Source: Cyanodermella asteris (Eukaryota; Ascomycota; Lecanoromycetes; Ostropales; Stictidaceae). Taken from it: a stretch of 64,000 nucleotides of DNA. The notes beneath the pieces are model-generated. The model worked only from the letters and a program-made list of their open reading frames with translations. It made no database searches and was not told the DNA's origin. This document shows, one piece after another, positions 15,216 to 23,749 of the stretch; the stretch's first letter is position 1, and the number at the start of each line of letters is the position of its first letter. The stretch lies in assembly GCA_900618795.1 (NCBI GenBank), contig UYJD01000005.1, forward strand, positions 1,282,522-1,346,521, given 5' to 3'. The translations under genes and the position numbers were made by a program.

Positions 15216-16251
15216 CGGAGCCCGATTGCAAGGGTCAGAAACCGAAAGCAACAATCATGAGTTGAGCTGCAGCTTCAACTGGTGTTGTCTATGTCGTTGC
15301 GCGGCGATGGCTCGTTGAGATAAATGAGATACCGCAATCAGACCAATAAATGTCGCAGTCTGATAGCAGTCGAAAACAGTAATACGCCAAGAAACGCACG
15401 TAGTGCTAAACTTTGAGTTGGGCCTTGCGGCACAATAAGCAAAAGTTTTGACCTCTGATGCAACTGCCCCACAGCTATGGCCTTTAGCTGAGTATCTCAT
15501 CAGCACAGGCAGCCAAGGGCAATTCTGTTTTCCGAAGGCGAGCCGGCGATTCAATGAGAAGCCCAGGATTTGAACTCTGAGTGCCAAGCGTCGGCAGAGC
15601 TAAGGACAGCCCAGTGGCACAATCAATAACCGCTGCAGAAGCACAGGAGGACCACGACCGAACGGCCGACCGGAGCTTGATTGACGGATAGAGATGATGG
15701 ACTGCTTCATGCTGGGCAGGCTCATATTTCACATGGCAGGAGATACAGCGTAGGTCGCGAAGCAGCGTGTCCAGCAGTCCCGGGCCAGCCCGATTTCACA
15801 CGCCCGTCGAGCTTCCGGTACGGCCAGGCCCGGCACGCAATGGAATCGACGGCGAATCACGGCGAACGTACAAGCTGGAGAAGGCGATGAAGCATCATGC
15901 CGTGCTCGCTCGAGGCAGTTTGTGCTAGTCTCAGCATCATTGCTGTGATGCCGTAGGCGCATCAATGGGTGGGACCGGTGGATATATATTGCTCTCGTTG
16001 CGCCTGCCCCGCGACTCAGAGGTCAGCTTCAGTCGTTCCTGCCTTTGCACCGCAGCGCCCCGCATCTCCGTCGAGTAGCACCGTGCACGCTACTACCGCC
16101 GTCGTTTCTGCCCGTCAATATCAGCTTGTCCTTCTTCTCAAATTCTCCCTTGATCTCTGTCCTGCCTCTGCATTCTCCCGCCAGCTTCACCTCCAGTGTC
16201 GCTCTTGCCTCCACTGAAGCAGAACTCATCTCTACTTCCCTCTCAGACACC
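15216..16251. other. Divergent region upstream of malate dehydrogenase
   Basis: About 1 kb. A TATA-like GATATATATT lies at 15981-15990, and a CT-rich leader fills about 16080-16250 before the MDH start. No gene found; a tRNA-like patch near 15560 was rejected. Confidence 0.5.
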
Positions 16252-17509
16252 ATGGTCAAGGCAGGTACGTCGTCGGCTTTCTCGGTCGAGCCCAGCAGCG
16301 AGGGAAACACGTGCTGATCCATTGCGTCCTAGTTGTTCTCGGTGCCTCAGGCGGCATTGGACAGGTAAGCTCGATTTCAATCCGATTGTCCCAGAGATAG
16401 CTCCCTGACGCTTGCGCAGCCCCTCTCCCTCTTGCTCAAGGCCAGCCAGCACGTCGACCAGCTCGCCCTTTACGATGTTGTCAACACACCCGGCGTCACT
16501 GCCGATCTCTCCCACATCTCCTCCGTGGCTAAGATTGAGGGCTACCTGCCCAAGGAGGATGGATTGAAGAAGGCCTTGACTGGGGCGGATGTCGTGGTCA
16601 TTCCAGCTGGTATCCCTCGCAAGCCCGGCATGACCAGAGACGACCTGTTCAAGATCAACGCCGGTATTGTTAGGGATTTGGTCCAAGGTGTCGCCGAAAA
16701 CTGCCCCAATGCCGCTGTGCTCGTCATCTCCAACCCTGTCAATTCGACAGTGCCAATTGCTGCCGAGATCCTCAAGAAAGCTGGAGTGTTCAACCCAAAG
16801 AAGCTCTTTGGCGTCACAACCCTCGACGTTGTCCGAGCCGAGACCTTCGTGCAAGAGATCACAGGAGAGACTGATCCTTCCAAGACCGTCATTCCGGTCA
16901 TTGGAGGTCACTCAGGTGAAACCATTGTCCCCCTCTTCAGTCTCGCCAAGCCCGCTGTGAAGATTCCCGAGAACAAGCTCGATGCATTGACAAACCGTGT
17001 CCAATTCGGAGGTGATGAAGTCGTCAAGGCAAAGGACGGCGCAGGTTCAGCCACGCTCTCAATGGCCTACGCTGGTTACCGCTTTGCTGAGAAGGTCATA
17101 AGAGCCGCTAAGGGTGAGAAGAGCATTGTCGAACCAACATACGTCTACTTGCCTGGCATTCCCGGTGGAGACGCAGTTGCGAAGGAGACTGGTCTGGATT
17201 TCTTCTCAGTTCCAGTTGAACTTGGCGTGAGTATAGCCCCTGATGTACAATGGCGCATGCACTAACATATGTCCCAGCCCGACGGTGCTGCTCAAGCTCA
17301 AAACATTCTCGGAAACGCCAACTCTTACGAGAAGAAGCTTATCGAGAAGTGCGTCGCAGACCTCAAGGGCAACATTACCAAGGGTATCGACTTCGTCCAC
17401 AACCCGCCAACAAAGTGAGTCCTTTTCGCAGTGGAACCGCCGGGGAGGGTCCGAATGCGCCCTACGCCTGGATACCAACTAATGTTCGTTTGACCTAGGT
17501 AGGCTGTGA
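16252..17509 (+). CDS. MDH: NAD malate dehydrogenase, cytosolic with a possible peroxisomal splice form
   Basis: Coding exons 16252-16264, 16333-16364, 16420-17226 and 17278 onward. The NAD-binding loop is VVLGASGGIGQPLS, the substrate Arg segment is GIPRKPGMTRDD, and the catalytic His lies in GGHSGETIVPL. It interconverts malate and oxaloacetate. There is no mitochondrial presequence, so the main form is cytosolic, 330 aa ending NPPTK. The TGA stop at 17416-17418 overlaps a strong donor (GTGAGT at 17415). An intron with branch-like ACTAATG and two acceptors four bases apart, TAG at 17498 and TAG at 17502, follows. The first acceptor again gives ...PTK and stop. The second gives ...PTKL and stop at 17509, a PTS1-like tripeptide. 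The coordinates include this alternative end. Only 299 nt separate it from the convergent TRS33 gene. Confidence 0.95.
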
Positions 17510-19427: not shown

Positions 19428-21099
19428 TCACTGGAATGACAGATCGGATTGTAATGGTGCTCGTGGTCTTGGGGGCAAGGGAAAGCCAACCCGACCGGAT
19501 GGTTGCCCTTGTGGTGGTGGCGCTTGACCAAGTCCGGGTGGCCATCCACCGCCGCCAATGCTGCTTGTATGTTGCCGCTTAGCAGGCGGCCTAATTGGTG
19601 TATCTTCTTCGTCCTCATCCGAATCACCTGTAAGATCAATCACGGCGGGTGCTGGCCGCTTCCGCGGGCCTGAATGCGGCGTGCTCGCTGATGATGGTGC
19701 TAGAGATTCCCTTGATGTTCCGTTCGTGAAGGTGGTGAATGTAGCTGGCGTTCTGAGAGAGTTGCCAATAACCGGAGCCGATACCTCGATTATATCATCA
19801 CTTAACTCTGTTTCCTCGCGTTTGACTGATGGCGCAGCGCCGTTATCCGACGAGTCATTATCTTTGACAAAAGACCACTGCCCATTTGGGTCTACTGTGA
19901 CTTGTTCGATCGATGAGGGGCTGTTTCGTAGAATATCCTCCACGTACTCGTCGATCTGGAGAATATCAAAAGGTATGTGTTGTTGACATACTGGACATAG
20001 GAATTGGGGTGCCTGAAGCTGTAATTGGAAGAAAGATAAGGCATCGAAACATTGGTTGTGCCTGCAACGCCTTGACCGAATCGGTGTGTGGATACGCAGC
20101 GTTGAGAGAGGACATTTTAATGACATCCGTGACGAAGTAGCCACGATTTCTTGGTCGTTCGCCCACCGGCTCATCTCCTGGAGCACTGAAGCTTTTGTTA
20201 TGCTCTTCGCCTCTCGAAGTTTTCGAACCAGGTCGTCAGCATCGTGCTGTCGTACCAAGTAGGAGACTAGGCTGTGCCGGCGAGTTGTTAGGGCCCATGT
20301 CACCGAGACACGGTTATCCTGGAGAGAAGACTGGTGTAAGAGATCAGTCACATCAGCAGGCCTTGTTGTGCCAGGCTTGTTCTTGAGACCGCGGAAGTTG
20401 GCTCGGACCTCTTGGCCATTGATGCGGACTTCGAAAGATGTCGGGAAGGTGACATGTGCCGGGCCTCTGAAGGCGTCATCCGTAGCACAGAAGAGGAAAA
20501 TTCTAAGCTTTTTGTCGAGGCGCATGCGTTCAACAACATCTCCACGAAGCTTGAAGGCAAACTCCTTTGTATCCCGACTGTGCTCCCGTGGATCAAGGTC
20601 AATTCGCGGCGACACTTTGTCCATCATCACCTGGAACGGCGAGTCAACGAAGCTCATGTCCGAACCAAGCTCAGCACCGTGATACGATTGGGACAAGGGG
20701 GCGCCGGCGCTTCCGCGGCCACTGGCCTGCCCTTTGAAGCGTGGTGAGGGCGTGAATGAGGAGTTGAGGGCGGAGGTGGGTTGAATTGCTGAGGATGCTG
20801 GCGGCGGAGGCCTGTCTGGATTTTGAATCATGAGTCGCAGGCGATCAAACCCATCTTTATTATGCGACTGCAATAGTCTGTTCAGTTCTGATGAAACACG
20901 TCAATTGTTGTTGTTCTTTCCGGAGGCGCTGGAGGTGCTGATGCTCACCGTCTTTGATCCTGGCGACGAGAACGCCCTTGGTGCCTGAAACAGGCAAGTT
21001 GCAGTATCGAAGTACGATTTTGAGCTTCTCCACCGTAAGGCCGGTGGCATCTCTCTCGAGTGCCTGGGCGATGTGATGGGAGCTGCCGGAGAACGACAT
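19428..21099 (-). CDS. PLI1: SUMO E3 ligase of the Siz/PIAS family
   Basis: Two exons, 20949-21099 and 19428-20887, giving 536 aa. The 61-nt intron is placed so that the SAP domain reads through as ARIKDELNRLLQSHNKDG. Domains in order: an N-terminal SAP DNA-binding motif (residues 15-55); a PINIT domain (from about SPFQVMMDKVSPRIDL to SVTWALTTRRHSLVSYLV); an SP-RING (CPLSTLRIHTPIRSRRCRH, CPVCQQHIPFDILQIDEYV); then two likely SUMO-interacting motifs, DDIIEVS and AVIDLTGDSDEDEED. The C-terminus is Pro/Gly-rich. The family transfers SUMO from Ubc9 to nuclear targets. The symbol follows S. pombe Pli1; yeast Siz1/Siz2 are equally near in layout. Confidence 0.92.
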
Positions 21100-23658: not shown

Positions 23659-23749
23659 TGCGTCAGCCGAGATTCGAACTCGGGTCCCTTGCTGATCCTG
23701 TATGTAAACAGTTGGGAAGCAAGTATCATAACCTCTAAACCACAAACGC
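23659..23749 (-). tRNA. tRNA-Gly (anticodon CCC) with a 19-nt intron
   Basis: The minus strand folds as a tRNA. The acceptor arm pairs GCGTTTG with CTGACGC, with one T-T mismatch and one T-G pair, and the discriminator base is A. The anticodon arm is CTTGC / GCAAG with loop TTCCCAA, so the anticodon is CCC (23714-23716). The T arm is perfect, CCGAG-TTCGAAT-CTCGG. A 19-nt intron (23694-23712) sits after position 37, the standard site for eukaryotic tRNA introns. A run of five T follows the gene (A's at 23650-23654), a Pol III terminator. The acceptor mismatch makes slight decay possible, but every other part is intact. Confidence 0.88.

What the first reader, a model, noticed from the sequence alone, without database searches (positions are those of the whole stretch)
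17401..17509. Malate dehydrogenase: tandem acceptors four bases apart switch a C-terminal -TKL on or off
The coding end reads AAC CCG CCA ACA AAG TGA. The G of the last Lys codon and the TGA form a donor, GTGAGT, at 17415. Downstream lie ACTAATG (branch-like, near 17479) and two adjacent acceptors, CTAG (ends 17498) and GTAG (ends 17502). Unspliced RNA ends in PTK. Use of the first acceptor also gives PTK (AAG TAG). Use of the second gives PTKL (AAG CTG TGA). T-K-L resembles the peroxisomal signal PTS1 ([SAC]-[KRH]-L; Thr at -3 is a weaker variant). Fungi are known to send some metabolic enzymes to both cytosol and peroxisome by alternative splicing or stop-codon read-through. One gene could thus supply cytosolic and peroxisomal MDH, which yeast makes from two genes (MDH2, MDH3).
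Basis: partly seen in the sequence, partly recalled or inferred. Interest (0 to 1): 0.78.

Follow-up and report, generated by a model that had tools for sequence, protein, structure and literature searches.

The report
Splice switch for peroxisomal malate dehydrogenase
The last intron of this fungal malate dehydrogenase gene could end at either of two points four bases apart, and the choice would add or omit one final amino acid that may send the enzyme to peroxisomes, much as is known for the same enzyme in the yeast Yarrowia; no RNA data were available to prove it.

Summary
The sequence facts are right. The MDH gene (ATG 16252, three internal introns) reads ...NPPTK-TGA when unspliced. A donor GTGAGT (17415) overlaps the stop, with CTAAT at 17479-17483 and two TAG acceptors ending at 17498 and 17502. 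Acceptor 1 gives ...PTK, acceptor 2 ...PTKL; the products differ only by the last Leu. Of 912 open frames of at least 40 codons, 20 have a donor, branch site and acceptor at their end, and only this one yields a PTS1-like end. The likeliest reading is cytosolic/peroxisomal dual targeting by alternative 3' splice-site choice. [quoted passage not shown] So this is a new member of a known kind, not a new mechanism. Weak points: no RNA evidence; no fungal genome collection to test conservation; no own genome to look for a second peroxisomal MDH; TKL is a middling PTS1; and the PTS1 acceptor is the distal one, while the three internal introns, as inferred, use the first AG after the branch site. 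The peroxisomal form would probably be the minor one.

The parts
16252..16264 (+). MDH exon 1 (start codon at 16252)
   Evidence: reading frame rebuilt; no RNA
16265..16332 (+). intron 1, GTACGT...CTAG, 68 nt
16333..16364 (+). MDH exon 2
16365..16419 (+). intron 2, GTAAGC...GCAG, 55 nt
16420..17226 (+). MDH exon 3 (NAD-binding and start of C-terminal domain)
   Evidence: Pfam PF00056 and PF02866
17227..17277 (+). intron 3, GTGAGT...CCAG, 51 nt; same donor hexamer as the terminal intron
17278..17414 (+). MDH exon 4, ends ...AAC CCG CCA ACA AA (phase 2)
17415..17420 (+). donor GTGAGT overlapping the TGA stop (17416-17418) of the unspliced form
17479..17483 (+). branch-like CTAAT, presumed branch A at 17482
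17415..17498 (+). terminal intron, proximal acceptor CTAG (84 nt); product ends PTK, stop TAG 17500-17502
17415..17502 (+). terminal intron, distal acceptor GTAG (88 nt); product ends PTKL
17503..17509 (+). G CTG TGA: completes Lys, adds Leu and stop when the distal acceptor is used

Best explanation
A real terminal intron sits across the stop codon of the cytosolic-type MDH gene. When it is retained or spliced to the proximal acceptor (17498), the protein ends in PTK and stays in the cytosol; when it is spliced to the distal acceptor four bases on (17502), one Leu is added, giving -TKL, a PTS1 that Pex5 can bind, so a fraction of the enzyme enters peroxisomes, where it would serve the glyoxylate cycle and reoxidise NADH from beta-oxidation. 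Shown here: the sequence layout and its three products, and that such a layout is rare by chance. Inferred: splicing, the ratio of the two acceptors, Pex5 binding, localisation and purpose.
For: Layout exact and the two acceptors the only ones in range. Donor hexamer is that of MDH intron 3 and of 3 of 9 introns found by a coding-score heuristic. Branch A to AG distance 16 nt for the proximal site against 11-15 in the three internal introns; tract 69% pyrimidine against 62-75%. Rarity: 1 of 912 open frames; 8 of 100,000 Markov flanks; 0 other switches in 127,221 slices. The enzyme is the NCBIfam equivalog TIGR01772 (E 1.5e-128), whose match ends at residue 325 of 331, so the NPPTK(L) tail lies beyond the conserved core. 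Precedent in the same enzyme: Y. lipolytica MDH isoforms from transcripts that differ in intron size by four nucleotides, one with a functional PTS1 (PMC3798809 section 5), the ratio depending on medium (PMC8124512 passage). MDH is described as universally present in peroxisomes with varied targeting strategies (PMC5133446 passage). TKL is in a published PTS1 pattern (PMC4207609), and a natural -TKL end (HPGDS) binds the PTS1 receptor with apparent affinity 1.79 against 5.11 for SKL in the same protein and 2.54 for the AKL of HSD17B4 (PMC6770196 Table 3 passage).
Against: No RNA evidence. Distal acceptor needs the first AG to be skipped, while the three internal introns (inferred) use the first AG after the branch site. 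The same human study lists the PTS1 predictor's verdict for the HPGDS -TKL end as 'Not targeted'; two prolines precede TK here and no fungal PTS1 predictor could be run. TKL fails the strict [SAC]-[KRH]-[LM] pattern. No conservation data. Alternative 3' sites are rare in some yeasts: 1 in Hansenula polymorpha and 2 in Pichia pastoris (PMC3866509 passage). The terminal intron (84/88 nt) is longer than the gene's other three (51-68 nt).
Confidence: 0.55

Rival explanations
1. The terminal intron is real but its use is neutral: it is a 3' UTR-type intron whose wobble between two acceptors makes a trace of PTKL without function, since TKL after NPP is too weak.
For: Intron signals are good; TKL is a middling signal and was predicted 'Not targeted' in its human context. 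Tandem acceptor-like sites are not rare: 31 of 226 acceptor-like sites in the window have another within 10 nt, 6 of 226 exactly 4 nt on, this locus included.
Against: A random tandem would rarely give a PTS1-like end on one side and the unchanged protein on the other (8 of 100,000); MDH is the enzyme for which this switch is already known.
Confidence: 0.22
2. The terminal intron is not spliced; the gene ends at TGA 17416-17418 and the donor, branch and acceptors are chance matches.
For: 20 of 912 open frames show donor, branch site and acceptor at their end, so intron-like signals at a frame end are not by themselves rare. The unspliced form makes the same protein as the proximal splice form, so the protein gives no reason to require splicing.
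Against: Full-consensus donor, CTAAT branch and typical spacing, plus the PTS1-like outcome.
Confidence: 0.13
3. Distal acceptor is the main one and the enzyme is chiefly peroxisomal, another gene supplying cytosolic MDH.
For: None beyond the existence of the site; S. cerevisiae has separate cytosolic and peroxisomal genes (PMC3798809).
Against: The proximal AG lies 16 nt from the presumed branch A, close to the 11-15 nt of the gene's other introns, and comes first.
Confidence: 0.06
4. Peroxisomal form arises by stop-codon readthrough rather than splicing.
For: Readthrough makes peroxisomal MDH1 in animals (PMC4207609 passages).
Against: The stop context here is TGA GT, not TGA CT, and the readthrough extension ends ...YQLMFV, not a PTS1.
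Confidence: 0.02

Closest known systems
Yarrowia lipolytica MDH2 alternative 3' splicing (Kabran et al. 2012, known here only through PMC3798809, PMC8124512 and PMC5133446; the paper itself is not held)
   Same: Same enzyme, same kind of choice (intron sizes differing by four nucleotides), same outcome (one form with PTS1, one without), by section 5 of PMC3798809.
   Different: Different fungus. The Yarrowia junction sequence was not seen here, so homology of the intron cannot be judged; from recall, its PTS1 and tail differ from TKL.
Ustilago maydis GAPDH and Aspergillus nidulans PGK, cryptic PTS1 by differential splicing (Freitag et al. 2012, through PMC3798809)
   Same: One gene makes cytosolic and peroxisomal enzyme through splicing near the 3' end of the coding region (the U. 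maydis form is described as C-terminally extended).
   Different: Other enzymes; extensions not described as a single residue in what I saw.
Animal MDH1 readthrough (PMC4207609, PMC5133446 passages)
   Same: Peroxisomal MDH from the cytosolic MDH gene by a hidden C-terminal PTS1.
   Different: Uses UGA CU stop readthrough, not splicing.
Saccharomyces cerevisiae MDH2/MDH3 (PMC3798809)
   Same: Cytosolic and peroxisomal MDH activities.
   Different: Two genes; Mdh3 ends in SKL (PMC8124512 Table 1).

Membership tests
NAD malate dehydrogenase (TIGR01772, MDH_euk_gproteo) | whole-protein score above the curated cut-off | tested here: met
   428.5 bits against 273.05, E 1.5e-128; Pfam Ldh_1_N and Ldh_1_C on exon 3
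Splicing-based cytosol/peroxisome dual targeting of MDH (Y. lipolytica MDH2 type) | two acceptors four nucleotides apart downstream of one donor | tested here: met
   acceptors end 17498 and 17502
Splicing-based cytosol/peroxisome dual targeting of MDH (Y. lipolytica MDH2 type) | exactly one of the spliced products ends in a PTS1 | tested here: inconclusive
   PTKL fits the Stiebler pattern but not the strict [SAC][KRH][LM]; PTK does not fit
Splicing-based cytosol/peroxisome dual targeting of MDH (Y. lipolytica MDH2 type) | both transcripts are made | not testable with these tools
   no RNA data
Splicing-based cytosol/peroxisome dual targeting of MDH (Y. lipolytica MDH2 type) | isoforms are found in cytosol and in peroxisomes | not testable with these tools
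   needs microscopy or fractionation
Splicing-based cytosol/peroxisome dual targeting of MDH (Y. lipolytica MDH2 type) | no other gene for peroxisomal MDH | not testable with these tools
   no genome held for the window
Splicing-based cytosol/peroxisome dual targeting of MDH (Y. lipolytica MDH2 type) | switch conserved in relatives | tested here: inconclusive
   no relative found in viral contigs (35 with a faulty pattern) or genome contigs (one search used a faulty pattern); these collections hold viruses and prokaryotes
UGA CU stop-codon readthrough to a PTS1 | TGA CT context and PTS1 at the end of the extension | tested here: not met
   context TGA GT, extension ends YQLMFV

The most novel reading that the evidence does not exclude
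The four-base acceptor switch at the end of MDH is an ancient splice event shared by descent between Yarrowia and this filamentous-type fungus, and S. cerevisiae replaced it by two genes (MDH2, MDH3). Here it would be in its most economical form: the two proteins differ by one terminal Leu, and intron retention and the proximal acceptor give the same cytosolic protein, so that only one of three RNA fates makes the peroxisomal enzyme.
Probability: 0.22. Interest if true: 0.62.

Novelty: new member of a known kind. Interest (0 to 1): 0.42.

Why it matters
If true, it adds a second fungal lineage to the Yarrowia case of peroxisomal MDH made by a four-nucleotide acceptor choice, and makes a simple test possible: whether such switches are inherited from a common ancestor or arise repeatedly. 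It also means that gene annotation, which normally ends this gene at the TGA, would miss a peroxisomal isoform of a central enzyme of the glyoxylate cycle and peroxisomal redox balance.

Tried and rejected
Stop readthrough: rejected on the stop context and the end of the extension. Conservation search: a full-length MDH query in viral contigs matched 24 stretches by pattern, none confirmed; a C-terminal alignment query matched 295 stretches in genome contigs and 92 in viral contigs, none confirmed; the C-terminal 87 aa had no match in plasmids. Search of solved structures: 171 distinct sequences matched, best 60 listed; organisms are not named in that list, so it says nothing about fungal tails; the three alignments shown end at query residue 325 or 326. 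A first intron scan with too high a threshold returned nothing; the lowered one gave 9 introns and missed MDH introns 1 and 2, so it is only a rough guide. One search's real-slice null included the locus itself and was replaced. A structure prediction was not run: the spliced protein is not one open stretch of the window and the tail question would not be settled by it. Papers: ten searches; in their listings I noticed no report of this switch in a filamentous fungus, but most papers are not held, the listings were capped, and the Kabran paper is not held, so this is no proof of absence. Passages of PMC12316961, PMC3764329, PMC3597508, PMC5611559, PMC9549241, PMC7758625, PMC1929074 and PMC11842775 gave context only; PMC1929074 calls TKL over-represented at mammalian C-termini but of unknown function.

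Full report
What is there. The window holds a malate dehydrogenase gene on the + strand. Its rebuilt coding sequence starts at ATG 16252 and has three internal introns (16265-16332, 16365-16419, 17227-17277) that keep one frame. The protein passes the NCBIfam equivalog cut-off for MDH (TIGR01772, 428.5 bits against 273.05; match to residue 325 of 331) and the Pfam domains on exon 3. It has no upstream ATG in the 240 nt before the start. Other open frames in the window match WAPL, GTP cyclohydrolase II, PINIT/MIZ, IPP transferase, WD40, 6-phosphofructo-2-kinase and MIF4G-like cap-binding families. Together with the short introns with CTRAY branch sites this fits a fungus; the species was not identified and no genome is held.

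The observation. Unspliced RNA ends the protein at PTK-TGA. The same G-TGA-GT is a donor. The proximal acceptor (ends 17498) gives AAG TAG, the same protein; the distal acceptor (ends 17502) gives AAG CTG TGA, PTKL. So of three RNA fates two give one 330-aa protein, and one gives the same protein plus Leu.

Is the intron credible? Donor GTGAGT is also the donor of intron 3, and of 3 of 9 introns in a rough coding-score scan that includes intron 3 and missed introns 1 and 2. CTAAT is followed after 16 nt by the proximal AG; the three internal introns have 11-15 nt. The intron is longer (84/88 nt) than the others (51-68 nt). In those three, as inferred, the first AG after the branch site is used, so the proximal site should be favoured and PTKL should be the minor product. 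There are no RNA data.

Is it more than chance? I joined this exon end and donor to random flanks from a first-order Markov model of the 3' region: 10,502 of 100,000 had a usable acceptor, 128 a PTS1-like product, 50 one with at most three added residues, 26 a switch within 10 nt, 8 a compact switch. With real window slices, the locus left out, 9,580 of 127,221 had an acceptor and 80 a PTS1-like product, all from a single site with 11 added residues; no switch. Scanning all open frames of at least 40 codons, 20 of 912 had donor, branch site and acceptor at the end and 1 of 912 a PTS1-like product, this one. At minimum lengths of 100 and 150 codons it is 0 of 133 and 0 of 46, since the last MDH frame has 50 codons. 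The odds depend on the broad PTS1 pattern of Stiebler et al., chosen because it contains TKL; TKL does not meet the strict pattern. Tandem acceptor-like sites as such are common enough (31 of 226 within 10 nt, 6 of 226 exactly 4 nt on, the locus included). At the scale of a whole genome a few chance cases would be expected (inference); that this one falls on MDH is what makes it persuasive.

Precedent. [quoted passage not shown] A Pichia paper adds that the ratio varies with medium (PMC8124512, passage). The original paper (Kabran et al. 2012) is not held. Similar splicing for GAPDH in Ustilago maydis and PGK in Aspergillus nidulans is reported there too. Animal MDH1 reaches the same end by readthrough (PMC4207609, PMC5133446, passages). 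Against a high prior, very few alternative 3' sites were seen in two yeasts: 1 and 2 (PMC3866509, passage).

Does TKL work? In a human study a natural -TKL end (HPGDS) bound the receptor with apparent affinity 1.792, its SKL mutant 5.110, and HSD17B4's AKL 2.544; yet the predictor calls the TKL end 'Not targeted' (PMC6770196, table passages). So TKL is plausible but middling, and partial targeting is the natural expectation. The tail lies beyond the conserved MDH core (the three alignments stop at 325-326), which would leave it free (inference).

What could not be tested. Conservation: the available collections are viral, plasmid and prokaryotic, and gave no confirmed relative; searches used a pattern with an error and do not count. 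A second MDH gene: no genome held. Splicing and localisation: no data.

Verdict. Observation confirmed; interpretation plausible, at 0.55, unproven; in kind already known from Yarrowia, hence a new member of a known kind. The bolder reading, common descent of the switch, is open and easy to test with public fungal genomes.

Noticed in passing
15949-16251 (+): The frame of the MDH start codon is open upstream for 101 codons without a stop, and the 240 nt before the start hold no ATG; the other two frames are open for 11 and 32 codons. The stretch 16000-16251 is 67% pyrimidine, which alone could explain it, but an N-terminally extended form from a non-AUG start was not excluded.
   Followed up: partly
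23659-23749 (-): Rfam finds a tRNA of 91 nt (44.8 bits, gathering 29) that ARAGORN, run with the bacterial code, does not report; the length suggests an intron or a long variable arm.
   Followed up: no
7423, 12835, 17413, 21442, 23393, 32870, 34052, 36785, 49289: AARTGAGT occurs 9 times, all on the + strand, against 4.41 expected over both strands; 1 of 100 shuffles reached 9. May only reflect donor sites.
   Followed up: no
19428-20873 (-): A PINIT and MIZ/SP-RING zinc finger protein, as in Siz/PIAS SUMO ligases (the SUMO ligase name is recalled).
   Followed up: no
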